NCBI GenBank assembly: GCA_003224145.1 | Contig: QHYN01000243.1 | Coordinates: 1-39,730, forward strand | Reading direction: 5' to 3' | Origin: Acidobacteriota bacterium | Lineage (GTDB): Bacteria; Acidobacteriota; Terriglobia; Acidiferrales; UBA7541 | DNA length: 39,730 nucleotides | In this document: piece after piece, positions 160 to 20,447 of the stretch | How the letters are laid out: each line of letters opens with the position of its first letter | Position numbering within the stretch: position 1 is the stretch's first letter | The notes under the pieces: model-generated | What the model saw: the letters and a program-made list of their open reading frames with translations, nothing else | Database searches by the model: none | What the model was told of the DNA's origin: nothing | Translations under genes and position numbers: made by a program

Positions 160-1100
160 CTTGACATCCCCTTATATAGGACTTCCGGATAGCCGACGTC
201 CATGATGAGTCTTCGTCAAGAGGGCAAAAGCTCTCCTGACGCGCTCGGGAGGAGCGCGTGAAACTGGTTTTTCGGGCCCTTCAGCTCGCGTTCGTGCCTC
301 TCGGCGTCGGTTCCCATGGTAAATAGAACCAGACATCCATTTACTGTCTCAGCCATGAATGGCCTACATAGAAGATTGAGTTAGTGATCTCCTGCCAGTC
401 TTGAAACAATCCGAAGGGAGCATCCGGAGCTTGCACTCCTTCGCCCAGTCGGCTACCAGCAAGACCTGGCAAGCCGCGCGCTGAAGAAAACCTCCTGATT
501 TCTCCACCGTCTACGCGGCGGTGCGGTTTTCTCTTTCTACTGTTAGAAATTCTTTTTGGCGTCGATCCACGGCGATCAAGTACGCCACCAGCTTGCGCGC
601 CACGGCGAGGGTCGCTCGGTTCGCGTTTCCTTTCTATCTCTCCCGGTCATACAGCAGCGCCAGCCCAGAACTCCGTCGCGGTGCCAACTTGGCCGCCTCG
701 ATCAGCACGCTCTGCAGATGCTTGTTGCGCTGCTTGGAAAGAGGGGTGCGCTTGATCCTGTTTGCCGAACTGTTCTCCGCGCCGCACAGCCCGCAGTAAC
801 TGATAGCCTTTTTTATCGACGAGAAACGCTTCACATCCCCAATTTCGAGCACCCAGGTCAGCGCCGTGACCGGGCCGACCGCTGGGATCCATCTGTCCAG
901 ATCGAATCGTGTTGCAGGAATCGCGCCTTCTGCGTGAATCTGACCACTTCCATCCTTCACGCAGTAGCTGATCCTTTTCTTGTGAACATCCAAGCCGATG
1001 TAATACATACTTTGCATGGGGGAGCCTCCTTGGTTGTCTCTGAATCAGCACGGTCGCTGAGTTCAGCTTTTGTACACCAAGCGCTCCTCCTGACTCATAC
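160..1100 (-). mobile_element. Defective IS110-family element (approximate limits)
   Basis: This stretch holds a degenerate IS110-type transposase gene (511-1017, minus) and about 350 bp of noncoding DNA downstream of it. No other gene is recognisable in 1-510. In the IS110/IS1111 group, elements lack ordinary terminal inverted repeats and carry a long noncoding end that encodes a guide (bridge/seek) RNA. The noncoding stretch at about 160-510 would fit that, but this is inference. The ends are not defined by repeats I can see, so the limits are approximate. The transposase has lost its centre and carries a stop, so the copy cannot move by itself. Confidence 0.5.
511..1017 (-). pseudogene. 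IS110-family transposase, internally deleted with a premature stop
   Basis: The N-terminus reads MYYIGLDVHKK, the start of the DEDD (RuvC-like) domain with its first catalytic Asp. After about 45 residues the protein jumps directly to IPAVGPVTALTW and FSSIKKAISYCGLCGAE, which belong to the C-terminal Transposase_20 domain. From memory of the family, about 200 residues are missing, including the rest of the catalytic domain. A TAG at about 634-636 interrupts the frame. The same frame then continues with KGNANRATLAVARKLVAYL, the family's usual C-terminus, to the stop at 511. Family recognition is by motif. Inactivity follows from the deletion and the stop. Confidence 0.8.
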
Positions 1101-3260: not shown

Positions 3261-4994
3261 CTAATACTTCGGAATGGCTTTTGGCACGTCGAGCACGAGA
3301 ATGCCCTGCCCTTCCGTGATCCTGAGAAACTGATCCGCTCGCAGGTCCTCAGATTTCTCCACCAGGCCGCTCGGCCATCGGACTTCGAGAGATTGAATGC
3401 GCGTTTCCTGGCCGAGTCCAAAGTGCAGGCGGATGTCGTTGTTGGACATGAAACTGCCGCCGCTTCTGACTTCCGCAGTTTGAACCAGACGACCGGCGGT
3501 GATACGCACGCGCGCCCCGATCGCATCGCGGTTACTCTTCGTGCCTACTAGCCGCAAGGTGACCCAATGTTTCCTGTTCCCGCCGTCGTTGCGAAGCAGC
3601 GTCGGCCGATCGTTTAAATTCACGATGAGGATGTCCATGTCGCCGTCATTATCGCAATCGCCGAAGGCGACTCCGCGGCTGGACTTTTCGATCAGCACTC
3701 CGCCCCCGATCTCGTCGGTGACATCACGAAAATGCCCGTCTCCCTGGTTGTGAAATAACTGCTTGCGCTCCAGGAATTTGGAGCCCAGAGCATACTGATC
3801 AATCTGCGGATAGATATGGCCGTTGGCCACGAAAAGATCGAGGAACCCGCCATTGGCAAGGTCCACGAAGCCAGTTCCCCAGCCCATGTAGGGCAGCGAA
3901 GGACCTGCTAGCCCGGTTGGGTAACTCACGTCGCGAAATGTGGCTTTTCCGCCGTTCTCGTACAGCGTGTTATAGTCTTGGGAAAAATTCGTAACGAAAA
4001 TGGCAAAGTTTCCATCGTGCTTATAATCACCGACATCCACGCCCATGCCCGCTTGAGCCGCCCCGGCTTCACTCAGGGCTGCGCCGGCTTCCAAGCCTAT
4101 TTCAGTGAACGTACCGTCCTTGTTGTTGCGGAAGAGAAAATTCGGGGTGGAGTCATTGGCCACATAAATATCGGGCCAGCCATTGTTGTCCAAATCGCTG
4201 AAAACAACACCGAGCCCATAATAGCCGGGGTCGTGAATGCCGGCCTGTTCGGTCACATCGCTGAACATGCCGTTGCGATTGTTGTGCAGAAGCACGTCCG
4301 GCTCGCCGCGCAACCCACGCGGTCCACACAGTACATCCATTCCCATGTATTGACAGAAGGAACCCTGGCTGGGTCTTGGCGTCTTCTCTGGATCAAAGGC
4401 AACATAGCGCGCTACGTATAGATCAACGTAACCGTCGCGGTCGTAGTCGCCGAACGCGCAGCCCGTGCTCCAGCCCGTGACGCCCGCCCCCGCTGCGGCA
4501 CTCACGTTCGTGAACGTGCCGTCGCCATTGTTCCGGAACAAGTGGCTCGAGCCAAAGCCGGTGATGTACACGTCCTCCGTTCCATTGTTGTCGTAATCGG
4601 CCACACAGACACCCATTCCCCACCCGCGCGCCAGAAGACCGCTCTTCGCCGTCACGTCCGTGAAAGTGCCATCACCGTTGTTCTTGTAGAGCGTGGCGAT
4701 GGGGTCGCCTCCCGTCTTCAGGTGTTCCAGCGTTGCTCCGTTGACGACGAGCAGGTCCATGAGCCCATCGTTGTTGTAGTCGAACCAAGCTGCTCCGTTG
4801 CCCACCACCTCCAGCAGGAAGTCCTTCTTCTGCTCGCCGGAAACATTGAGCACCGTGACACCGGCGGCCTGAGCAACGTCCGTCAGGCGAATCCCAATGG
4901 ACTCCTGTGTGGGCACCAACTCCGGGAGAACGGTGCCTGCCAGAACACAAGTCAACACCAATACAAGAACGATGGCTTTCACGCGGGACATCAT
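3261..4994 (-). CDS. CRTAC1-family secreted protein (FG-GAP/VCBS repeats plus ASPIC/UnbV domain)
   Basis: This 577-residue protein has an N-terminal signal peptide (MMSRVKAIVLVLVLTCVLAG). At least seven beta-propeller blades follow with calcium-loop motifs: DYNNDGLMD, DYDNNGTED, DYDRDGYVD, DLDNNGWPD, DYKHDGNFA, DLANGGFLD and DCDNDGDMD. The last ~80 residues form the ASPIC/UnbV domain (HWVTLRLVG, IGARVRI, SGGSFMSNNDIRLHFGLG, EVRWPSG). It is probably an exported or surface integrin-like propeller; no enzymatic role is established. In Acidobacteria such proteins often sit beside or are fused to TPR proteins, and here TPR genes flank it on both sides. It is divergent from the 5099 gene, with a 104-bp shared upstream region. 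The start could equally be the second Met. Confidence 0.9.
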   Translation of the reverse strand: MMSRVKAIVLVLVLTCVLAGTVLPELVPTQESIGIRLTDVAQAAGVTVLNVSGEQKKDFLLEVVGNGAAWFDYNNDGLMDLLVVNGATLEHLKTGGDPIATLYKNNGDGTFTDVTAKSGLLARGWGMGVCVADYDNNGTEDVYITGFGSSHLFRNNGDGTFTNVSAAAGAGVTGWSTGCAFGDYDRDGYVDLYVARYVAFDPEKTPRPSQGSFCQYMGMDVLCGPRGLRGEPDVLLHNNRNGMFSDVTEQAGIHDPGYYGLGVVFSDLDNNGWPDIYVANDSTPNFLFRNNKDGTFTEIGLEAGAALSEAGAAQAGMGVDVGDYKHDGNFAIFVTNFSQDYNTLYENGGKATFRDVSYPTGLAGPSLPYMGWGTGFVDLANGGFLDLFVANGHIYPQIDQYALGSKFLERKQLFHNQGDGHFRDVTDEIGGGVLIEKSSRGVAFGDCDNDGDMDILIVNLNDRPTLLRNDGGNRKHWVTLRLVGTKSNRDAIGARVRITAGRLVQTAEVRSGGSFMSNNDIRLHFGLGQETRIQSLEVRWPSGLVEKSEDLRADQFLRITEGQGILVLDVPKAIPKY

Positions 4995-5055: not shown

Positions 5056-5098
5056 TGCAGTAGAGAATACCAATATTCAGGGCCTACGAAACACCGAA

Positions 5099-6766
5099 AT
5101 GTTTTTCAAGCGAATCCACCTGGGTGCCGAGCGGTCTCCTTTCGAGGGGAACGTGGTTCCTGGCCTGGTTACTGGCAGCCCAGCCAGGCGACCGGCCGCG
5201 ACACTTCTGGCTTGTTTCCTTCTGTCCACGCAGGCATTGTCCGGCCAGGAGCCGAGCTGGCCGGAGCTGATGGCTGCGGCTCAAGCTGCATACCAGCGGG
5301 CAGACTATGCCCGGGCCGAACGGCTTTTTGTCTCAGCCCTCAAGCAGACAGAAGAGCTTGGTAACACCAGTCCAAAAGTGGCAACGACTCTAAACAACCT
5401 GGCGGAGCTTTATCGCACGCAACGGCGCTACGCCGAAGCCGAACCTCTGTACCTGCGAGCGTTGTCCATCCTGAATGCCGCCGGAGGTCTGGATCAACTC
5501 GAAGCGGCCACGGTCCAGAATAATCTCGCGTTCCTCTATCACGAACAAATGCGATACGCTCAAGCCGAACCGCTCTTTCGGCACACGCTCGAGACTCGTG
5601 AGAAGTTCCTGGGTCCCGAAAACCCCGAAGTCGCCACGACTCTGAACAATTTAGCCGAACTCTTGCGCGCTCTCCATCGCTACCCCGAAGCCGAAACAAG
5701 TTACAGGAGAGCACTGGCCTTGCGGGAGAAGGCTTTCGGCCCGGAGCACCCGAAGGTAGCCGTCTTGCTTAACAACCTGGCCATGCTCTGCCTCGACCAG
5801 GGCCGATATACAGAAGCCCAGCCCTTGCTCGAGCGGGCTCTGGCGATCCGCAGGAGAAGCCTGGGTCCAGAACATCCCGACGTCGCCACCACCCTGAACA
5901 ATCTTGGCGAACTCAGGCGCGCTGAGAACCAGCTTGCCGAGGCCGAGGGCTTCTACAAGCAGGCGCTTTTGATTCGAGAAAAGTCATTCGGCCAGAAAAA
6001 TCCCGAAGTGGCCACGATTCTCCACAATCTCGGTGTTCTCTACCAGGATGAAGGGCGTTATGCCCAGGCGGAGCCGTTGCTACAGCGCGCGATGGAACTG
6101 CGCATCGCTGCACTCGGCGAGGACGATCCTAAAGTGGGGGCGGCCCAGAGAAGTTTAGGGGAGCTCTATCAGTTCCAGGGGCGCTATTCGGAAGCCGAGC
6201 CACTCCTGAAGCGCTCGCTCGCGATTCAGGAGCGAGTCGTGGGAACGGACAGCATTGTCTTGGCCAGGGTTCTGGACGCGCTGGCGCTCACCTATCAGTT
6301 CGAGGGCCGCTATCCGGAGGCGGAGTCCTTTCTGAACCGGCTCCTGCAGATTCGCGAAAGGGCCACCGGGGAAGAGCATGAGGACATAGCCAAGACGCTG
6401 AACAGCCTGGCGGGAATTTATCGGCTCGAAGGGCACCCCGCGCAAGCCGAGCCGGTCTATCGGCGCCTACTCCTCTTGCAGGAACGGATTCTGGGTCTCA
6501 AGCACCAGAAGGTCGTCGCGACGCTGGACATACTCGCTGGGGTTACGTTGGAGCAGGGGAAATTCGCCGACGCAGATACGTTCTTTGAGGAGGCCCTCAG
6601 CATCCGCAGGGAGACACTCGGCGCGGATCACCGGGAAGTTGCGAGCGCCCTCGAAACTTATGCGTCGCTGCTGCGGAAGGCGAAGAGGCTAGAGAAAGCA
6701 GAAGAATTGGAAGCGAAAGCCCATTCCATCCGCACCAACTCTGCCGGGCAATCACCGAAGCAGTGA
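5099..6766 (+). CDS. Kinesin-light-chain-like TPR protein, exported
   Basis: From the ATG at 5099 this is a 555-residue protein. An upstream in-frame start at 4907 would overlap the divergent gene and adds no recognisable sequence, so it is rejected. Residues about 30-55 include a hydrophobic stretch (ATLLACFLLSTQALSGQ) consistent with a signal peptide after a long N-region. The remainder is about eleven TPRs with the 42-residue spacing of the TPR_10/TPR_12 (kinesin light chain) type, recurring as VATTLNNLAELYR, YAEAEPLYLRAL and REKxLGPEHPxVA. No catalytic domain is visible. It is likely a periplasmic or envelope-associated interaction scaffold. The binding partner is unknown; neighbouring genes suggest the same envelope cluster. 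Confidence 0.85.
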   Translation: MFFKRIHLGAERSPFEGNVVPGLVTGSPARRPAATLLACFLLSTQALSGQEPSWPELMAAAQAAYQRADYARAERLFVSALKQTEELGNTSPKVATTLNNLAELYRTQRRYAEAEPLYLRALSILNAAGGLDQLEAATVQNNLAFLYHEQMRYAQAEPLFRHTLETREKFLGPENPEVATTLNNLAELLRALHRYPEAETSYRRALALREKAFGPEHPKVAVLLNNLAMLCLDQGRYTEAQPLLERALAIRRRSLGPEHPDVATTLNNLGELRRAENQLAEAEGFYKQALLIREKSFGQKNPEVATILHNLGVLYQDEGRYAQAEPLLQRAMELRIAALGEDDPKVGAAQRSLGELYQFQGRYSEAEPLLKRSLAIQERVVGTDSIVLARVLDALALTYQFEGRYPEAESFLNRLLQIRERATGEEHEDIAKTLNSLAGIYRLEGHPAQAEPVYRRLLLLQERILGLKHQKVVATLDILAGVTLEQGKFADADTFFEEALSIRRETLGADHREVASALETYASLLRKAKRLEKAEELEAKAHSIRTNSAGQSPKQ

Positions 6767-6814
6767 GCGACGCTCGAGCTCGGCTTCTGACTGCTTACCT
6801 CTTGCTGTCGCCTC

Positions 6815-6850
6815 AAAAAAGAAAGCGGGCTGGCTCTGCAGCCAGCCCGC
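6815..6850 (-). terminator. Rho-independent terminator of the Oar-like receptor gene
   Basis: Read on the minus strand, an 11-bp perfect GC-rich stem (GCGGGCTGGCT and its complement) with a 4-nt loop at 6825-6850 is followed by TTTCTTTTTT. It lies 26 bp beyond the stop of the receptor gene at 6876. Confidence 0.85.
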
Positions 6851-6875
6851 CGTCAAAGGTTGTTGCTATCCCGGT

Positions 6876-9800
6876 TTAGAACTCAACCCGGAAGCCGATC
6901 TGGATAAATCGGGGGTTGTTCCGCGTTGAGTTGATGACGCCGAACGTTGACAGATCCGTCGCGTCAGTCCCCGGATCGTTGAATATCGGGTGGTTGAAGG
7001 CATTCAGGAAATCCGCTGTCAGGCCAATGGCCACTCTCTCTGTGACTTTCGTCATTTTACCCACGGAGAGGTCTACTTGCCAGCTCGGCAAGCCGCGGAT
7101 TGCGCCGAAGCCGAACCTGTGGTCCTGGGAGATCAGCGGGTAGCGGAACATGCTGGAGACCGTTTCGGGGTTTGCGAACAGGTTCATGTCCCCGGTAGTC
7201 CCCACGCCATTCGACCCGGTCACGCCAATGTGCCTCGAGGCACCGGGGTTCTTGAAGCTGCTGTTGGGAAGGTTGCAATTGATCTGGGGATTCTCTGTGC
7301 CGTAGTCGAACCCTCCGAAGACGCACAGCGGGAAGCCGCTTGCGTAAGTCCAAATGCCGGCCCAGTGCCACCCTCCGATGATCTTGTTCACCACCGCGTT
7401 GTTGCCGCCAAAGCGCTGGCCTTTCCCGAGAGGCAGCTCGTGGTACCAGTGGAAGTTGATGACGTGGTGGCGATCGAAGACCGAGGGTCCACGATCCCAT
7501 TCCGGACGGAACGGCGAGGTCGCGCTGAACTGCGTGTTCTCCTGATTGATCCCGAAGATATCAATCGAATGACTGTACGTATAATTGGCATCAAAGGTTA
7601 TGCCATGCGACATGCGCTTGTGGATGGAGACGAACCCGGCATGGTAGTCCGATGTGCCATGGTGAGTCGTCAGGTTGTTGACGAGCACCTGGATGTTGTC
7701 AAGGGGCTGCTGCCCATTCTTGAAGCGCAGAATGTTTATGCCTGTGCCGGGGGTATTCATGATGCTCCAAAGGTCGCCGGTGCCCGCCTCGAAGTTGAAC
7801 TGATCGGCCAGGTAGGCCGTTACGCTGGAGAAACCGCTGCAGGTGGCATTTACAGCGCAGGCGGCCCCGGCCATGTTCTCGAACCAGGGCTCGGGAGTGA
7901 TCGCCCCTCCGGCACGGACCTCCTGAGCAAGGCCGTCAAACGCGACACCCAGGCTCTGTCCGGATGTCGGATCCTTAAACATGAACGGAGTGGCATTCAT
8001 GTCCGCGTTCTGGACAAGGTCACGTCCGAGCCGTCCCACGTAGCCGACTTCCACGAGCAAGTTCCGCGGCAGCTCGCGCTGCACGGTGAGGTCAAAGCTG
8101 TGGGAGTAGCCCAGGGTGAACCCGGGATCGATCATGAAGGAACGGGTCTCGCCGTAGGGCGCCGAGACCGCAAAGGGGATGCTCGCCGCCTGCACGGGTT
8201 GTGCGCTCGGCAAGATATTGCTTCCGTCCCCGTCAAACCCGAGGCGGAATGAATTGGCCGGAGTGCTGCCGCCGGAGCAGGTTCCGTTTCCGATGGGCGG
8301 TGGGGCCTGCGGCCCGCGGCAACCCTGGATCTGGCCAAGGCCCACGCCCAGGAGCGGCGTCATAACCAGGCCAACGCCGTTCATGCGGGCATGTGTTACC
8401 GACCAACCGCCGCGAAGAACGAGCTTGCCGTTCCCGAGGCCGTGGAGGGAAGAACCTGGATGCCAGGCGAACGCCAGCCGCGGCCCAACGTTGTTCCAGT
8501 CAATGTGATTCACGACGTACGTGTTACCGGCCACGTGGCGCACGGGAGAGAAGGCGATGTCCGGGTTAAGGATCTGGCCATTCAACGCTGCCGCCTCGCG
8601 CGCTTGAAAGAGAGTGGTCAGGTCCACGGGCAGGCCGCTGTCTGCAAAAATAGGAACCATCTGCCGGCCTAGTTCTTCCGTGGGGGGTTTCTGCACCTGA
8701 TAGGTGAGGCCCAAGGTGAGAGTGAGTGAAGGCCTTACGCGCCAAATATCTTGGCTATAGCCCTCGACGGCATGGATGTGGACTTGGGCCCGGAGCGGCG
8801 TGCCGAGCGGCAGCGGATTCAGGTCACCGTCACGCGCCAGGAGCTGTGCCGACCTGTCTGGGATCCCCATCAGGGCGGCGTAGAAGTTGTTCCACTTGCT
8901 TCGATCGCCTGAGGAAGCGATGCAATTGGTGGATACGATTGCGCCGTTCGCCGGATCCCCATTGCAATTGGGCGGACGGAAGGTGGACGCGACGGTGAAG
9001 AAACTCCCCGCGTTCAGGTAGAAAATAGGCCCAAGGGCCAGCCCGCCGGTCACCTTGTCGGTGCGCTGGTGATAGATATTCTCAAACCGGTAGCTGCCGC
9101 CGAACTGCCACGTATGGCGGCCCTTGATGTAGGTCAGGTTTTCGGAAGCGAAGGTGTCTTTGCCATTCCAAACGCGCGAACGCGCGTTCTGGGTGTCAAT
9201 ATTGTACGGGTCGGCGAACTTCGTGCTCGAAGTGGCACCGGTACCCTCGCCCGCGAGCGACAGCGCAGCGGCTGTGCCCGAAACCTGTGGTAAGGGCGGC
9301 CTGGTGGCCCACTCCCACCAGTGCCGGTACCATGAGACGTGGGTCTCGCTTAGCAGCCTAGGGGTGATCTGGCCGATGAGGCCGGCGACATAGTAGCGCG
9401 GCTGGAGCGGATTTATGCGCGTCGAGCAAGGTGCGCTGCAGCCGCTGATGCCGACGATGTCAATCTGCTGGGTGCCGGGCTGGAAGTAGTATTGGTAGCG
9501 TCCGCTGCCAAAAAAGTTCCATCTGTCGTTGATCTTGTAATCCACGCGTGCGACAGCAAATTCTTGCCGGATGCCATTGGCGGCGTTAGCCCGGTAGCCA
9601 ACAGTGTTCAGACCGTCTCCCAAGGCTACGCCTGTGACCTGTCCCGGGAGTTGGGCCATATCCGCCAATGTCACAGGGCTCGCGCCGCGGCCCTGCGGTT
9701 CGCACGTGGCAAGCCCCGTCGAACTACAGAAGGAAGCGATCGGCCCATTCGCCGGATTGAAGTTGTACTGGACATTGTTACCACCCAAGCACGCGAAAGT

Positions 9801-11003: not shown

Positions 11004-11981
11004 ACATAAGTTTTAGATAAGGTTAAGCTTGAAGGCCCCGTTCCTGGTCCATTCGAACAGTGAATTTTCCGGCCTCTGGGTGGATCTGCCTGGGATAGGG
11101 CCAGCCCGCAAACACCAATTCACGCAACCACAGGTGCTGGCGATCTTGTGTTTGATGCGCAACGAAGACTGGACCTTTCGCGAAGCCGAAGTGCGGCTGT
11201 GGGAGCATAGCAAGTTGCGCGCGGTGCTCTGGCTTTCCAGCTTGCCCGACTACACCACAGTGTATCGCTTCTTGTGGCGGCTGCCGGACGACACCATCGA
11301 GAGCGTATTGGGAGAATCGACGGGCTGCGGTAGCTGTTGACGGCACCGGGCTCTCGCCTTATGCCGTCAGTACCTACTTCATCCGCCGCAGTGAGGAGCA
11401 GATCCGCGGAAAAACCCGCTATCGACGCTATCTGAAGTGGCTGATGGTGGCCGACGTGGATCGCCAGATTATCCTGGCGCAGCAGGCGCGACAAGGCCCG
11501 CGATGCGACACGCCGGCACTGCCCGGCCTGGTGGACGCGGCCAGCCGCACCCAACCCATCGGTCTGGTGCTGGCCGACGCCGAGTTCGACTCCGAAGCCA
11601 ATCACCGCTACATTCGCACGGCGCTGGGGGCCGACAGCGTGATCCCTACCAACCCGCCGCGCGGCATCCCGGTGGGAGAAATCCGCTACCAGATGCATGG
11701 TGTGCGGAACTTGTATGGGCCGCGCGCGAAGATAGAAACAGTCTTCTCGGTGATCAAACGCAAGCTCTCGGCCAAAGCACCGGGGCGCCGTGATAGGGCT
11801 GGTGCTCACGGTCTTGATTATAGTTTCTTCGTGGCAATTGTGTCTCGTGAACGAGCGCCCGTTTCCCTAGGGTCATAAACACCACCTTTGGAGAGAAGAT
11901 TTATACCAGATGGTGTTGCATCGACCTGTTGAGCGCACAGCAGTTATCGGACAAGTTCCTCCCTGTGTCAAAAACTTATGT
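11004..11981 (+). mobile_element. Decayed DDE insertion sequence with putative 11-bp inverted ends
   Basis: The sequence ACATAAGTTTT at 11004-11014 recurs inverted as AAAACTTATGT at 11971-11981, bracketing the broken transposase gene at 11029-11878. The enclosed length of 978 bp suits a small IS4/IS5-type element. No flanking target duplication is obvious, so the exact ends remain uncertain. The element separates the receptor gene from the selC island. Confidence 0.5.
11029..11878 (+). pseudogene. IS4/IS5-type DDE transposase, frameshifted
   Basis: The first frame (11029-11340) encodes an N-terminal part with LCLMRNEDWTFREAEVRL and LPDYTTVYRFLWRLP. It then runs into a stop after a +1 frame change near 11320. 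The second frame continues with AVDGTGLSPYAVSTY (first catalytic Asp), VLADAEFDSEANHRYI (second Asp) and YGPRAKIETVFSVIKRKLS, which fits the IS4-superfamily Y-x2-R-x3-E-x6-K signature exactly. The C-terminus (APGRRDRAGAHG) also looks altered. All three acidic residues survive, but the split frame should abolish function unless frameshifting occurs. Subgroup assignment is uncertain. Confidence 0.75.
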
Positions 11982-15277: not shown

Positions 15278-15668
15278 ACAATTGGCAGACCGAGAGACCT
15301 CGGGGCGAGTCGCAGAACAATGTACTGGTACCAAGATTTTTTCTGACATTTTCCGTTTTCGAAGCCTCTTTAATAGTAGAGGGCTGTGTCGCCTATGAAA
15401 GTTTTGCAGCGAATCGACAGTCTCTATCGTCTTCGCCACTGTGGTGAGGGTGAATGGTGCATGAAAAACACAGATCACCGTATCCGTCACCCTCGCGTTC
15501 ACTTCGCCGATTTGGTAAGTGCCGGAAGGAGAAGCGATTGAGCGCAACGAGACGCTCGATGCTGGTTTGGGGTGCCGCGATTGTGTGATGGCGACCGCGC
15601 TCCAATCCAGTCCTGTGTTAGACTCCGCGCCAGCAACGTCATCGTCGCCGAGGATGGAGAGCACCATC
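15278..15668 (+). other. Integrase leader region, no gene seen
   Basis: About 390 bp precede the integrase ATG. An imperfectly spaced inverted repeat CCTCT...AGAGG sits at 15365-15382 in an AT-rich patch. A long upstream extension of the integrase frame to 15519 lacks the usual integrase N-terminus and is not favoured. I see no tRNA-derived attachment repeat in this stretch. Confidence 0.35.
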
Positions 15669-16889
15669 ATGCCCCGGCGGCGCTTCCAGTCTGGACGCGT
15701 CTATCAGCGAGGTACCCAATGGGTTGGATCGTACCGCGAGTATGAAGTCAACCCGAAGACCGGCAAGCGGGCAAGGAGGACGATCACCTTCGATGCGACC
15801 GTTACATCGGAGCGTGCGGCAAAGGCTGCCCTTCAACCATACCTGGACGATTACAACGCCAGGGCCAAGGAGAACCTCAAACCCTCAGCACCCTCAAGAG
15901 CGGGAAAATCAGTCAGAGCGCTCATCACAGAGTGGACCGACAAAATCCTTCCGAATCGAAAACCAGGGGGAGCGCGTGCTGCCCTATCGCACATTCGGAC
16001 ATATATTCTCCCGCAGCTTGGCGAGGTTCCTTTGCGTGAACTGAATCTCAGCCAGCACCAAGGGTTCGTAACCGCAGTCGGCCGGCGTGTCGATCGCCGG
16101 AAGACTGCGGAGAACGTCTACGGCACCCTCGGCTCGATTTTGAATATCGGACGAAAGTGGGGTTACGCGATCCCGAACGTTGAAAAGAGAGACATCGTGT
16201 TCCCTGCTGACAAAAAACCCCAACCGCAGATCTTTTTCTTTGACGCTGACACAGCCGCGCGAGTCATCAATGCTGCGGTGTACCCCTACAAACTCATGCT
16301 CCTCATCGCCGCGGTGTGCGGCCTCCGCATAGGCGAAGTTACCGCTCTGAAAGTCAGTAGCCTCGACTTCAAGCGGAAGCTCATCCAGATCACCGGCGCC
16401 CTGGACTACGCCACTCGAAAGGAAGGCACCCCGAAGAGTGACAATAGCGCAGCTCCAGTCTGCATGTCCGAGCTGCTCACGAAACACTTGCACAACTGGC
16501 TCACGAAACACTACAAGCCGAACGTGGACGGCTATCTCTTCACCAATTCCAAGGGCAAGCCTTTCCTGTCCGACAACGTTGTGAAATACGGAGTTCATCG
16601 GGCAATGACAAAACTTGGGATTGAAACTGCGAAAGGCGTTCACGTCGGCATCCACTGCTTCCGACACGGCGTTACGTCAGAACTGCTCCAGTCCGGCACC
16701 CCGATTCACGTTGTCACCCGGCTTATGCGCCATGCTGATTCCAACGTCACTCTGGAGCACTACGCGCACATCGTTGGCGATGCCGAGCGGGTTGCGTCTG
16801 AGAAGTTCTCTCTGAGGATCGGGCAAAACATCACTCAATTGGAGTCAGACTCCGAATTGGAGTCAACTTCCTCTGTTAAGACCGCGTGA
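15669..16889 (+). CDS. Tyrosine-type site-specific integrase
   Basis: From the ATG at 15669 the product has 406 residues, a normal length. The N-terminus (MPRRRFQSGRVYQRGTQWVGSYREY) is an AP2-like arm-binding domain. A SAM-like core-binding domain spans about residues 80-180. The catalytic domain shows R220 (CGLRIGEV), H329 and R332 (HCFRHGVTSELL), H355 (RHADSNVT) and the nucleophile Y365 (LEHYAH), so all key residues are present. It should excise and integrate the island. Its stop is 10 bp from the 3' end of the tRNA-Sec gene, the classic position of an integrase beside its attachment site. The tail (LESDSELEST) is acidic. Confidence 0.93.
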   Translation: MPRRRFQSGRVYQRGTQWVGSYREYEVNPKTGKRARRTITFDATVTSERAAKAALQPYLDDYNARAKENLKPSAPSRAGKSVRALITEWTDKILPNRKPGGARAALSHIRTYILPQLGEVPLRELNLSQHQGFVTAVGRRVDRRKTAENVYGTLGSILNIGRKWGYAIPNVEKRDIVFPADKKPQPQIFFFDADTAARVINAAVYPYKLMLLIAAVCGLRIGEVTALKVSSLDFKRKLIQITGALDYATRKEGTPKSDNSAAPVCMSELLTKHLHNWLTKHYKPNVDGYLFTNSKGKPFLSDNVVKYGVHRAMTKLGIETAKGVHVGIHCFRHGVTSELLQSGTPIHVVTRLMRHADSNVTLEHYAHIVGDAERVASEKFSLRIGQNITQLESDSELESTSSVKTA

Positions 16890-16899
16890 AAAAAGGACT

Positions 16900-16998
16900 T
16901 GGCGGAAGCGTGTGGGAGTCGAACCCACCATTCGACCCGCAAAGGACCGAATCGCCGGCTTTGAAGGCCGGGGAGATCACCGGACCCCTTTCGCCTCC
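16900..16998 (-). tRNA. selC: Selenocysteine tRNA, anticodon UCA
   Basis: On the minus strand the 99-nt gene starts GGAGGCGA and ends CGCTTCCGCCA, with CCA encoded. The acceptor arms pair for seven bases with one G-U. The anticodon stem CCGGC/GCCGG closes the loop CUUCAAA, giving anticodon UCA, which reads UGA. A long variable arm (GATTCG with CGAAT) and a GTGGG/CCCAC T-stem with loop TTCGACT complete the tRNA-Sec shape. It delivers selenocysteine with SelB; selA, selB and selD are not in this window. The -10 box at 17006-17011 and the 30-bp duplicate of the 5' end at 17779 are described separately. Confidence 0.97.
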
Positions 16999-16999
16999 G
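16970..16999. repeat. 30-bp direct repeat, left copy (5' part of selC)
   Basis: This copy covers nucleotides 1-29 of the tRNA-Sec gene plus one upstream base. It is identical to 17779-17808 over 30 bp. The sequences diverge immediately outside on both sides, as expected for core sites of a site-specific integration. Confidence 0.9.
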
Positions 17000-17306
17000 T
17001 TCCTAATAATACCTTCATCCCGCGAAAACTGATTGATGTACCCAACGCGCTCAGTCTCAAAAACTGACGCTCGAGCAGCGGTTGTGTCAGTTCATTGCAT
17101 GCGGCTTAAAGCAGTCCCGGCCATCTGTCTCGTTATTGTGCCAGGATCGCGAGCAACTCGGAACTTAGTGGTAACCCATTCAAACTTCCGAGTTGGCAAA
17201 CAGGCGCCCTGAAACCGCCGTTGCGCAATAAAATAGATGGGATACGAAATCTGGGTTGCCGCGTGTATTGTTCGGTCCCCGCTAAGAGGCTTCGTTCCTT
17301 TCAGTT
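17000..17306. other. Spacer between selC and the GH3 remnant
   Basis: Beyond the -10 box I see no gene or repeat here. A minus-strand frame of 164 codons (17092-17586) runs antisense to the GH3 remnant and looks like a shadow. Confidence 0.4.
17006..17011 (-). promoter_or_regulatory. -10 box currently in front of selC
   Basis: On the minus strand TATTAT lies 7 nt before the tRNA 5' end. No good -35 hexamer is present at 16-18 bp; the best matches are weak. This contrasts with the promoter beside the partial copy at 17814-17843. Confidence 0.45.
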
Positions 17307-17778
17307 TTGGGAAGGGCCGTGGATTTTCTCCCTGCACCAGGTGTAAACCTGTGCTTGACGGTTTGCGCCCGCATGCCTCAACCTGCGGATCGCCCGTGGA
17401 TGGATAAGACGCTGTCGCCTGACCGCCGCGCGGACCTGGTGCTGAAGGAGATGACGCTCGACGAAAAAATCGGCTTCGTCCACGGAAACGGCATGCCCGG
17501 CTGGGGGCCACCGAGGCCCAGGGCTTATCTCGGCAATGGCGGCGCCGGTTTCGTACTCGGTGTGTGCCGCCGCTGGGCATTCCCATGATTCAGATGAGTG
17601 ACGCCGCCTACGGCGTGCGCAGTAGCGGAGAGAACGGGCGCTACTCGACGGCTCTGCCGTCTCCCCGGCCTTCAAGCCGCCTCATGTTGTAGCTTTGCGC
17701 GCAGTTCGAGCCCGATCAGCACGCTCTACGCGCAGGCCGCCTGCACGTCCCAACTGGAAGCCAGTGCAACATTGAACA
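17307..17778 (+). pseudogene. Glycoside hydrolase family 3 fragment
   Basis: The frame contains RPWMDKTLSPDRRADLVLKEM, then TLDEKIGFVHGNGMPGWG and YLGNGGAGFVLGV, the N-terminal part of a GH3 beta-glucosidase or xylosidase. A frame change near 17565 moves the continuation (VPPLGIPMIQMSDAAYGVR and SGENGRYSTALPS) to another frame. Further changes follow, and the homology dissolves just before the 30-bp tRNA repeat. GH3 enzymes have 700 or more residues, so less than a fifth remains. There is no signal peptide or credible start. It is a dead fragment, probably brought in with, or cut by, the event that duplicated the tRNA end. Confidence 0.8.
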
Positions 17779-17808
17779 GGGGAGATCACCGGACCCCTTT
17801 CGCCTCCG
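17779..17808. repeat. 30-bp direct repeat, right copy (orphan 5' end of tRNA-Sec)
   Basis: Identical to 16970-16999. It retains only nucleotides 1-29 of tRNA-Sec, so it cannot make a tRNA. It is followed on the right by a good minus-strand promoter. Confidence 0.9.
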
Positions 17809-17813
17809 GGAGC

Positions 17814-17843
17814 AGTATAGAAGAGGGGTCTAGGCAGGCTCAA
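17814..17843 (-). promoter_or_regulatory. Probable ancestral selC promoter
   Basis: On the minus strand TTGAGC (17838-17843), an 18-bp spacer and TATACT (17814-17819) lie 6 nt before the first base of the orphan tRNA-Sec 5' end. Both hexamers are close to sigma-70 consensus. It starts 8 bp beyond the stop of the 17851 gene. Confidence 0.6.
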
Positions 17844-17850
17844 GGCGGGT

Positions 17851-20319
17851 TCAAGAGCGTTGCGACACGAGGGCGGCGGCCACATTTGTGCGGATCAGGG
17901 CGGCGACGAGATTGTAGAGAGCCGGGCTGGTACAGACCTCGTAATAGTAATGCTCAGTGGGGCCGCCGATTTTTCCGTCGGGGAGCAATTTGCGGGCAAA
18001 GGCCTTGCGGATCACAAGCAGCTCGACAGATTCGCCGAGGGGAACTTCGCCGTAAAAGAGGGTGACGCTTTGCTTGCCCCAGGGCATCTCGAGTCTGGTT
18101 TCAACAGAATCGAGAGAAATTTCCTCGGAGAGTTTCTGAAACCCTTCTTCGTTGATTTCGATGCCGTTCATGTTGTAGCGAACGAGGAATTCGTCCAACT
18201 CTTCTGCAGAGGCGCCTTCCATTGTGTTCAAGAACTGATAAATGGAGAAGTGCGTCTTCTGTTTGGCGAGCATGCGCTTGGCGAGTTTGGCGCATCCGGA
18301 GAGACGGTCGGATACATTGAGGGCTTTGGAGATCATGATGCGCGAATCGCCGTCGGTCCAATACGTGGGAGCGTCGCCTTGAAAGGCCACGCCAAGGCCA
18401 AGTTCAAGAGCCGGGAGATCGCTGGAGGAAGCTTGCTCGTTGTAGGAATTGCATACGGCGAGGATCTGGCGGGAGAGAATGCAGGCTTTGGCCACCGGGC
18501 GCGCGTAGGCAACGGAGGATTCGGTTTCGAAAATCGCGAGGATGATGGCATCGCCTTCAATGAAGACTTTTTTTGCGGAGTAGCGGTCGAGAAGCTTTTT
18601 GACAGGCTCGTGCAAATTCAGGCTGAAATGCGAAGCAGGATTCAGGCCGCGAGAGAGGAGATCCTGGGTCATGCGCGTGGAGCCGCGAACGTCGGCTTTG
18701 ATGATGACGTGCGACACGACAGTGTCCTGGGCAGGACGGGCCTCCTCCGGAAGGACACACTCGTAGAGCCGGTTATTGAGGCGGGAGAGTTCGCGGGCTT
18801 TTTCCGTGATGACCAGATTGATGCGTTCCATGCAAGTGGTGAGATGCTCGGCATCGCGAAGATCCCTGTGCAAACGAAGGAAATCCGCGGCGAAGCGCAA
18901 AACGGCGGCTTGCAGCTCCTCGCGGGAGAACCGCCGAATTTTCCTGGAAAGTTCTTCGATGGTTTTGAGGGACAACTTCTTCGCTGGAACCTGCTTGATA
19001 ACCCGTTCGACCTGCTTTAGCTCATCCTTGGACACCAGTGCTTTACGAAGCTGCTGGAGGTGCACGGGCGGACAGTAGTCGGAAACGATGGGGCGGATTT
19101 CGTAGCTAGCCAAGACGTGGTAGAGAATCTCGTGCTGTTCGAGGCGATCGAGAAGCCTCGTCAAAAGCTGTGCGCGAAGGGAGGCTCCCGCCTCCGGCCC
19201 AAAACCCGGATCAAAGAGCCGGCCAGCGTTTTCCGGCTCGTTGAGATACTCGCCGAGCCTGGCCTCGCGATCCTTGTGAAAGAAATCGAGCTTTTGGCGG
19301 GCTTCCTCGACCTGCGGCCCAATTTCTTCGAGCTTTAATTCCTGATGCTTGAGGCGGAGTTCGACGTCGTGCAGAGAGGCTTTGAGGTCGCCGGGAGCAC
19401 CGGAGTTCAGCATTTTCTTGAAAAAACCGTCGCTCCGTTCGAGGCGTTTGCGGGCGTTTTCCCGTTGCTCCTCAAGGTTAGCAATTTCATTGCGGATGGC
19501 TTGAATGGCCTCGAGCACGGCGGTGTGCGCCAGTACAGCTTCCTGGCGTGCCGGTTCGTCAGTGATGGTGAGACCCGCCTCGCGGAGGAATTCCTGGAAT
19601 AGGGCGTCCATAGCTTCGAAGCGGTCGGGGTCGCGAACATAGTTGCCCAGCAAAACGTAATGTTCGAGGAAAAAGACGTCATCCTTGCCACCATCCAGAA
19701 ATATCAGGCGATTCTTGCAAAGCTCATAGTAGGGCGAGAAATCTTCGCCGAACAATGCGCGGCGGGTCCTGGCGATGGCGTTATCCTCCACATCGGCGAC
19801 GATCTGCGCCACCTGCTGCCCGACGCGGCGAATGACCGCGCGACGCGCCGACTGCAGCTCGGACAAGCGCGCTTTGATGACGTGAGCCTGCTGGCTGCGT
19901 TCGAAATGCTCGCCGCGTTGGCGAATCCATTCCTTGCCTTCCAGAATGAGGTTGCCGAACTGATTGCCGATTTCGAAGGTGAGAAACTTCAGCAGGCTCA
20001 AGCGGAAGAGCAGATCGATCTCGATGTTTTTGTGATATTTGGCCAGCGTAAGAGAGCTGTGGAGAACCTCTGAGAGCAATTTGCGAAAGCCGACAGAGTC
20101 CGGCCCGCGGGTGGCGCGGAGTTCGACACCCGGAAGATAGGTGGAACTGGCGGTCTGACGGATGAGATCGAAAAGATACTCGCGGGCAGCCTGGACGAAC
20201 TTTGGACTTAGGAAAACGTCGTGGTGGATGTTGTCCACCCCGATGGCCAGCGTCCCCATGGGGATGGTGACGTTATAGCGTTTCAGGTCGATGTGGGACG
20301 CTTCGGACGAGCTGGACAT
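17851..20319 (-). CDS. Large coiled-coil protein with class III nucleotidyl-cyclase-like domain
   Basis: The ATG at 20319 (822 residues) is preferred over a TTG at 20349. Residues 1-265 are helical and of unknown family (RYNVTIPMGTLAIGVDN, ALFGEDFSPYYELCKNRLIFLDGGKDD). About 265-350 is a coiled coil (EEQRENARKRLERSD). About 360-530 is another helical region. Residues about 536-690 resemble a class III adenylate/guanylate cyclase core: HVIIKADVRGSTRMTQDL, with metal-ligand candidate D543, and FIEGDAIILAIFE, with candidate D590, then SKALNVSDRLSGCAK. The last ~130 residues are unassigned. No membrane segment is visible, so it should be cytosolic. It is the last gene of the minus-strand block, next to selC. 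Whether it makes a cyclic nucleotide is unproven. Confidence 0.75.
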   Translation of the reverse strand: MSSSSEASHIDLKRYNVTIPMGTLAIGVDNIHHDVFLSPKFVQAAREYLFDLIRQTASSTYLPGVELRATRGPDSVGFRKLLSEVLHSSLTLAKYHKNIEIDLLFRLSLLKFLTFEIGNQFGNLILEGKEWIRQRGEHFERSQQAHVIKARLSELQSARRAVIRRVGQQVAQIVADVEDNAIARTRRALFGEDFSPYYELCKNRLIFLDGGKDDVFFLEHYVLLGNYVRDPDRFEAMDALFQEFLREAGLTITDEPARQEAVLAHTAVLEAIQAIRNEIANLEEQRENARKRLERSDGFFKKMLNSGAPGDLKASLHDVELRLKHQELKLEEIGPQVEEARQKLDFFHKDREARLGEYLNEPENAGRLFDPGFGPEAGASLRAQLLTRLLDRLEQHEILYHVLASYEIRPIVSDYCPPVHLQQLRKALVSKDELKQVERVIKQVPAKKLSLKTIEELSRKIRRFSREELQAAVLRFAADFLRLHRDLRDAEHLTTCMERINLVITEKARELSRLNNRLYECVLPEEARPAQDTVVSHVIIKADVRGSTRMTQDLLSRGLNPASHFSLNLHEPVKKLLDRYSAKKVFIEGDAIILAIFETESSVAYARPVAKACILSRQILAVCNSYNEQASSSDLPALELGLGVAFQGDAPTYWTDGDSRIMISKALNVSDRLSGCAKLAKRMLAKQKTHFSIYQFLNTMEGASAEELDEFLVRYNMNGIEINEEGFQKLSEEISLDSVETRLEMPWGKQSVTLFYGEVPLGESVELLVIRKAFARKLLPDGKIGGPTEHYYYEVCTSPALYNLVAALIRTNVAAALVSQRS

Positions 20320-20447
20320 TAGAGTTCGTTGGGCATGTCCTTTTGCCAACGGCTTCTTTTCACGGTAGCAGCCGGACTGGGGCCGGGCAAGGAATCTAGG
20401 GGCCGGGCGTAACCAGAGAGTTAGGAGAGAGGCGGTAGGATCAGGGC

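What the first reader, a model, noticed from the sequence alone, without database searches (positions are those of the whole stretch)
16900..17843. selC partially duplicated, with apparent promoter exchange
The 5' 29 nt of tRNA-Sec plus one base occur twice as a perfect 30-bp direct repeat (16970-16999, 17779-17808). The complete gene at 16900-16998 now has only a TATTAT box in front of it. The orphan 5' end has a near-consensus TTGAGC-18-TATACT promoter. This fits a crossover in the 5' half of selC, so the inserted DNA (about 16999-17778, perhaps shortened by deletion) supplies the present promoter. Integration at tRNA genes normally duplicates the 3' end and keeps the native promoter; a 5' crossover that rewires expression of the only UGA-decoding tRNA would be unusual.
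Basis: partly seen in the sequence, partly recalled or inferred. Interest (0 to 1): 0.7.

Follow-up and report, generated by a model that had tools for sequence, protein, structure and literature searches.

The report
tRNA-Sec gene rewired by 5'-half integration
In this bacterium the only gene found for the selenocysteine tRNA has been cut from its own promoter by inserted DNA that re-supplied the front half of the gene, most likely the shrunken remains of a mobile element of a known but rare kind that enters tRNA genes from the 'wrong' end.

Summary
selC (16900-16998, minus) and an orphan copy of its first 29 nt plus one flanking base (17779-17808) form a perfect 30-bp repeat found only twice in the draft genome. 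In relatives a promoter like the orphan's (TTGAGC-18-TATACT) is joined directly to a complete selC, 31-61 bp from the neighbouring gene. So the orphan marks the native start of selC, and 16999-17778 is inserted DNA. Orphan selC 5' parts in two other genera end at the same nt 43, with an integrase gene or a piece of one against the 5' end of selC. Related integrases sit 5' of Asn, Lys, Arg, Leu and Met tRNA genes; five such elements leave orphans of exactly nt 1-40/41. Best reading: a decayed element that integrated through the 5' half of selC and brought its own promoter. This mode is known but rare (Islander: 159 of 3,919 islands; archaeal pTN3). The window keeps no detectable integrase, so the mechanism is inferred. 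The integrase at 15519-16889 belongs to a separate, ordinary 3'-end island.

The parts
16900..16998 (-). complete selC (tRNA-Sec, anticodon TCA), the only full copy found in the draft assembly
   Evidence: ARAGORN; own-genome searches
16970..16999 (-). copy 1 of the perfect 30-bp repeat: selC nt 1-29 plus one upstream base
17779..17808 (-). copy 2: orphan selC 5' part at the native position of selC; base 1 is at 17807
   Evidence: position against relatives
17660..17679 (+). inverted selC anticodon-arm piece (TCTCCCCGGCCTTCAAGCCG) that continues the orphan to nt 43 with one base missing
   Evidence: inverted repeat I1
17660..17785 (.). 126-bp segment inverted between 7-bp inverted repeats TCTCCCC / GGGGAGA
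   Evidence: re-inversion restores collinearity of the GH3 fragment over 387 bp
16999..17778 (.). inserted DNA between the repeats, absent at this place in relatives; no integrase remnant detected
17379..17652 (+). 5' part of a decayed glycoside hydrolase family 3 gene (frameshifted against the C222 copy); its continuation, 17682-17774, is inverted
   Evidence: 90-92% identical to the own-genome C222 copy, which matches Pfam Glyco_hydro_3
17814..17843 (-). native selC promoter, now orphaned: -10 TATACT at 17814-17819, -35 TTGAGC at 17838-17843
   Evidence: same type in relatives; letters checked
17006..17011 (-). TATTAT, the only -10-like box close to the full selC; -35 poor; activity inferred only
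15519..16889 (+). tyrosine integrase of a separate, classical 3'-end selC island; AATTGGAGTCA repeats at 16837 and 16855 inside its 3' end
   Evidence: Pfam Phage_integrase; relatives at selC 3' ends in G017 (91.5% over 106 aa, at a contig edge) and G008 (82.7-92.1%, in three pieces)
17851..20349 (-). conserved neighbour gene (832 aa, no Pfam or NCBIfam family) whose stop lies just upstream of selC in relatives; used as anchor

Best explanation
16999-17778 is the cut-down, rearranged remnant of a mobile element that integrated into selC by tyrosine-integrase crossover in the anticodon arm, with its attP carrying the 5' half of selC (nt 1 to 43) behind an element-borne promoter. At one junction the native promoter kept the displaced 5' half (17779-17808 plus 17660-17679). 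At the other, the element's promoter and 5' half were fused to the native 3' half, giving the present full selC. Later the interior, integrase included, was lost, a GH3 gene fragment came to abut the orphan, and 126 bp inverted. Shown: the native place of the orphan, the insertion, the exchange of 5' flank, the nt-43 edge shared with independent elements, and integrases on the 5' side in relatives. Inferred: that an integrase made this copy, and that the TATTAT flank now drives selC.
For: Native-type promoter joined to full selC in relatives. Orphan only at the native place. After re-inversion the orphan runs nt 1-38, lacks one A, then GCCG to nt 43; independent selC orphans in G042 and G054 also end at nt 43, and the G051 orphan printed ends at the same GCCG. 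In G054 an open 381-aa integrase frame ends 31 bp before the 5' end of selC; G042 has an integrase fragment there; G021, same genus as the window, has an integrase pseudogene on that side. The same integrase group sits 5' of tRNA genes in 19 of 30 class-level loci. Five elements have distal fragments of exactly nt 1-40/41. Three of 33 viral loci examined carry a tRNA 5' half just beyond the integrase with no full tRNA gene near.
Against: The window insert is 780 bp, holds no integrase remnant, and its GH3 DNA abuts the anticodon edge directly, which is not an ordinary element end. Its first 380 bp have no relative in the genus. The TATTAT box is no better than chance. In one search, 14 of 19 int-tRNA loci gave no distal 5' fragment (11 of these 14 stretches reach a contig end). 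The wider integrase family mixes 5' and 3' placement: 8 of 30 class loci and 31 of 80 wider loci are 3'-placed. Among 25 5'-placed wider loci only 3 show an upstream 5' fragment, two (L264, L275) have a 3' half downstream instead, and two (L266, L324) have short 3'-end matches.
Confidence: 0.78

Rival explanations
1. The full selC at 16900 is an extra complete copy brought in by another element, for example the classical island to its left; the native selC was then truncated to its 5' part by deletion and GH3 DNA was joined to it by chance.
For: Two complete selC copies exist in G027 (3.65 kb apart, 88% alike over 99 nt, each with a native-type -10) and two in G009, there across an N gap.
Against: Close relatives of the window integrase in G017 and G008 adjoin a single selC in the native place. 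A chance truncation need not end at nt 43, where independent elements end. The full copy has no 5' flank of the native type.
Confidence: 0.1
2. No integrase: DNA was inserted by illegitimate repair or template switching, and the 30-43-bp repeat is a by-product of the repair.
For: The insert is scrambled (a 126-bp inversion at 7-bp inverted repeats, a GH3 fragment), as in repair-made insertions.
Against: The repeat starts within one base of tRNA nt 1 and ends at nt 43, close to the limits of integrase-borne blocks elsewhere.
Confidence: 0.08
3. Assembly artefact of a draft genome.
For: 359 contigs; no reads available to check.
Against: The joint at the orphan falls at the boundary seen in independent genomes, and the repeat at the joints is only 30 bp. 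G012, G021, G034, G056 and G004 also lack the native-type selC -10.
Confidence: 0.04

Closest known systems
tRNA-gene islands with a 5' tDNA fragment (Islander database; [quoted passage not shown]
   Same: Intact tRNA gene plus displaced 5' fragment upstream in the same orientation; the element supplies the 5' part of the gene. Islander's Table 1 counts 159 islands with a 5' fragment against 3,760 with a 3' fragment (PMC4383910, passages).
   Different: The window remnant is 0.8 kb and lacks an integrase, so Islander's integrase and 2-kb filters would reject it. The Zhao and Williams paper is not held; its title was seen in the reference list, and a one-line citation in the text, of PMC6563490.
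pTN3-type integrases of Thermococcales (archaea)
   Same: 41 bp shared by attP and attB that include the tRNA-Leu anticodon; [quoted passage not shown] The review PMC8371274 says attB is the tRNA 5' half (passages).
   Different: Archaeal, and the integrase gene is disrupted by integration. In G054 the bacterial integrase frame is whole and lies beside the rebuilt tRNA gene. The enzymes' sequences were not compared.
classical selC insertions entered through the 3' end, e.g. Pf-tRNA-Sec phages of Pseudomonas
   Same: Same target gene. One such island adjoins selC in this very window (15519-16889). Pf-tRNA-Sec prophages use a 27-bp piece that ends in CCA, i.e. the 3' end of tRNA-Sec (PMC7549136, passages).
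   Different: The 3' end is duplicated. Here the promoter and 5' half are exchanged.

Membership tests
5'-fragment tRNA-gene integrative element | intact tRNA gene with a same-orientation 5' fragment upstream | tested here: met
5'-fragment tRNA-gene integrative element | fragment lies at the native place, insertion absent in relatives | tested here: met
5'-fragment tRNA-gene integrative element | shared block from tRNA nt 1 to the anticodon arm | tested here: met
   met only after undoing a 126-bp inversion, and with one base missing; as it stands the block is nt 1-29
5'-fragment tRNA-gene integrative element | integrase gene inside the interval | tested here: not met
   none detected in 16999-17778; hence called a remnant, not an intact element. 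Present beside selC in G054, as fragments in G042 and G021
5'-fragment tRNA-gene integrative element | length 2-200 kb (Islander filter) | tested here: not met
   809 bp from repeat to repeat
5'-fragment tRNA-gene integrative element | excision and integration by the integrase at the anticodon arm | not testable with these tools
   needs an enzyme assay or excision PCR
classical 3'-end selC island (for the 780-bp insert) | native promoter retained, 3' fragment at the far end | tested here: not met
   promoter displaced, 5' fragment instead
classical 3'-end selC island (for integrase 15519-16889) | integrase at the tRNA 3' end | tested here: met
classical 3'-end selC island (for integrase 15519-16889) | 3' fragment of selC at the far end | tested here: inconclusive
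   none in the window with up to 3 mismatches over 24 nt; fragments lie on other contigs, C106 and C118

The most novel reading that the evidence does not exclude
Acidobacteriota and some other bacterial phyla carry a group of phage-type integrases that repeatedly switches between entering tRNA genes through the 3' half and through the 5' half. In the 5' mode the mobile element takes over the promoter of the tRNA gene, selC among them, and after the element decays the host is left with a permanently rewired tRNA promoter. Several selC loci in this genus (window, G004, G012, G021, G034) would be such scars.
Probability: 0.45. Interest if true: 0.6.

Novelty: new member of a known kind. Interest (0 to 1): 0.45.

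Why it matters
Text-book tRNA-gene integration preserves the host promoter. Here inserted DNA has replaced the promoter of a gene that the selenocysteine pathway cannot do without (a full-length SelB gene is present in this genome). The group of elements found around it gives natural cases in which expression of a tRNA should depend on an element, and related integrases of both orientations with which to ask how an integrase switches the half of the tRNA gene it uses.

Tried and rejected
The window's own integrase as the cause: rejected, its relatives are of the 3'-end type. GH3 as a dispersed repeat that carried the selC piece: not supported; the own-genome C222 copy runs on past the joint without selC sequence, and the GH3 copies of other genomes were found but not read through. 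An integrase remnant in the insert: none found with three integrases as queries. Similarity of 16999-17377 to the genus: none. Orphan 5' parts in 17 other selC loci with gaps of 90 to 16,626 bp: none, apart from the second full copy in G027 and a 13-nt chance-level match in G034. Integrase remnants in nine gaps (G034, G056, G087, G012, G021, G030, G031, G027, G005): only in G021. Viral contigs with a selC 5' half of this type: 2 contigs matched; in both selC runs off the contig end beside a relative of the window's 3'-type integrase, so no support. A 14-base anticodon-arm pattern was too unspecific. In alignment A2 two of seven rows (G019, G007x) were taken on the wrong strand; I do not use that alignment.

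Full report
What is there. selC lies at 16900-16998 on the minus strand. Its first 29 nt plus one upstream base recur perfectly at 17779-17808; a 26-nt selC 5' pattern with up to 3 mismatches matches only these two places in the assembly. The window is one whole contig (C342) of a 359-contig, 4.79-Mb draft, 95.4% complete. Relatives in genome contigs whose contig lengths equal those of G042:C13 and G091:C9 are titled Terriglobia and Acidobacteria, so I take the family to be in Acidobacteriota (inference).

Which end is native. In relatives the 832-aa gene at 17851-20349 (found in 77 of 89 family genomes) is followed by selC. I fetched 40 stretches; in 13 genomes with a single selC the distance is 31-61 bp. 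In the window the orphan base 1 lies 46 bp away by the same measure and the full selC 855 bp. The orphan's promoter (TTGAGC-18-TATACT, 6 nt before base 1) is of the relatives' type: 30 of 37 selC copies examined have TATACT or TATAAT 6-8 nt before base 1 (G009, G027 and G034 appear twice). The 7 rows without it are G034 (twice), G012, G021, G030, G056 and G004; G030 has TATGCT there and may be native. The full selC of the window has TATTAT 7 nt before base 1 and no good -35; its score is reached by a third of random sequences.

The hidden part of the duplication. 17379-17652 is 90-92% identical to the start of a glycoside hydrolase family 3 gene elsewhere in this genome (C222), and 17682-17774 is the next part of the same gene, inverted. 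At the inversion joint lies TCTCCCCGGCCTTCAAGCCG, a piece of the selC anticodon arm; the 16-nt exact word was reached in 0 of 2,000 resampled inserts. Turning 17660-17785 round makes the GH3 fragment collinear for 387 bp and gives an orphan of nt 1-38, one missing A, then GCCG to nt 43.

The same edge elsewhere. A pattern search of 89 family genomes for the selC 5' end (59 had a match) gave four matches that are clearly not part of a full selC: the window, G042, G054 and G051; two more, in G036 and G059, lie in a selC cut by a contig end. The G042 and G054 orphans match their full copies exactly to nt 43, and the G051 orphan printed ends in the same GCCG, its full copy not being found. By contrast 13 rows are 3'-end pieces, as left by ordinary 3' integration (judged from coordinates; I read the sequence of three).

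The enzyme. In G054 a 381-aa tyrosine integrase (int54; Pfam Phage_integrase) ends 31 bp before the 5' end of the full selC, on a contig that also carries a DNA cytosine methylase gene; the orphan is on another contig. G042 keeps a C-terminal integrase piece in the same position (71.6% identity over 67 aa). G021, in the window's genus, keeps an integrase pseudogene on that side. A search of 299 genomes of the class found int54 relatives in 71 at E 1e-30 or better. Of 30 loci returned, 19 have the integrase 3' end facing the 5' end of a tRNA gene (Sec, Asn, Lys, Arg, Leu, Met), 8 have 3'-side placement and 3 have no tRNA near. I then fetched 20 longer stretches: 13 of these 19, five loci picked because one search showed a tRNA-like match just beyond the integrase, and two not checked before. 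In 19 of the 20 a tRNA gene follows the integrase. In 5 of these 19 a distal fragment is present, nt 1-40 or 1-41, with no more than 4 upstream bases shared (G070 Lys; G074, G091, G050, G047 Leu); G047 and G050 hold a second, shorter 5' piece as well. In 14 none was found in the stretch held; 11 of these stretches reach a contig end. So in these five elements the block begins at tRNA base 1 and the promoter comes with the element. At G042 selC 26 upstream bases are shared too.

Wider spread. Of 80 loci in genome contigs (a capped list), 25 are 5'-placed, 31 convergent at the 3' side, 24 without a near tRNA. Upstream 5' fragments were found in three of the 25: the G091 and G042 records again, and an Omnitrophota tRNA-Gln case, 92% over 38 nt with mismatches from nt 6 on. 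Half-gene 3' fragments were found in five of the 31. Two 5'-placed loci (L264, L275) have a 3' half downstream, presumably of another element, and two (L266, L324) short 3'-end matches. On a quick tree of 106 integrases (46 labelled 5', 34 3', 26 none) the 5' label needs 16 changes against a shuffled mean of 34.8, none of 500 shuffles as low: clustered, but switched many times (quick method, two long branches flagged, one of them the window's integrase). Of 80 viral-contig loci (capped list) I examined 33. Three (L342 Leu, L361 His, L371 Ser; 89-97% to tRNA genes of other organisms) carry a tRNA 5' half about 50-100 bp beyond the integrase with no full tRNA gene within 700 bp, as an attP should; two others (L344, L347) have a full tRNA gene at that place near the contig end; one (L343) has one on the other side; weaker or 3'-half matches occur in six more.

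What is known. Islander lists 3,760 islands with a 3' and 159 with a 5' tDNA fragment (passages). [quoted passage not shown] The pTN3 paper reports 41 shared bp (legend passage). PMC6563490 cites Zhao and Williams 2002 and others for the less frequent 5'-distal recombination (passage). Pf-tRNA-Sec phages use a 27-bp 3'-end piece (passages). Searches for selC with integrase and anticodon, for 5' half with own promoter (no hit) and for Acidobacteria with tRNA integration listed no 5' case in selC as far as titles and abstract beginnings show; the library lacks most subscription papers, so this is weak.

Judgement. The window shows a rewired selC that fits a known but rare mode of integration. 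The element itself has decayed beyond proof: no integrase, 780 bp, a GH3 fragment against the orphan. A full-length SelB gene is present (C178), so the pathway is presumably in use and the present flank presumably gives enough selC transcription (inference).

Noticed in passing
window 15519-16889 and left of it: A second, classical element enters selC at its 3' end, so this selC has foreign DNA on both sides. No selC 3' fragment marks its far end inside the window; fragments lie on contigs C106 and C118, C106 beside the same AATTGGAGTCA repeats.
   Followed up: partly
L092 (G027), selC at 5065-5163 and 8714-8812: Two complete selC genes 3.65 kb apart, 88% alike, each with a native-type -10, around one 956-aa frame (5500-8370 minus); no integrase found between them.
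   Followed up: partly
L086, L096, L109 (G034, G021, G004): Three genomes of the window's genus share a different, related selC 5' flank (read by eye: TTGAAT or TTGCGT, 17 nt, TAGGCT-like, 17-18 nt before base 1), perhaps an older element promoter fixed in a lineage.
   Followed up: partly
L194 (G051) about 3821-3863: Orphan selC 5' part with no full selC found in the assembly and what looks by eye like an ABC-transporter operon about 200 bp beyond it; possible loss of selC or a gap in the draft.
   Followed up: partly
L250, L251, L252, L253, L254: A separate integrase group sits 103-109 bp before the 5' end of tRNA-Ser genes in five genomes of the family; the four rows put in the tree form one supported clade.
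   Followed up: partly
L287 about 9412-9759: An int54 relative lies upstream of a tmRNA gene on the same strand in an Aminicenantes genome.
   Followed up: no
window 634-1017 (-) and 11444-11878 (+): Transposase fragments of the IS110 type and a DDE type.
   Followed up: no
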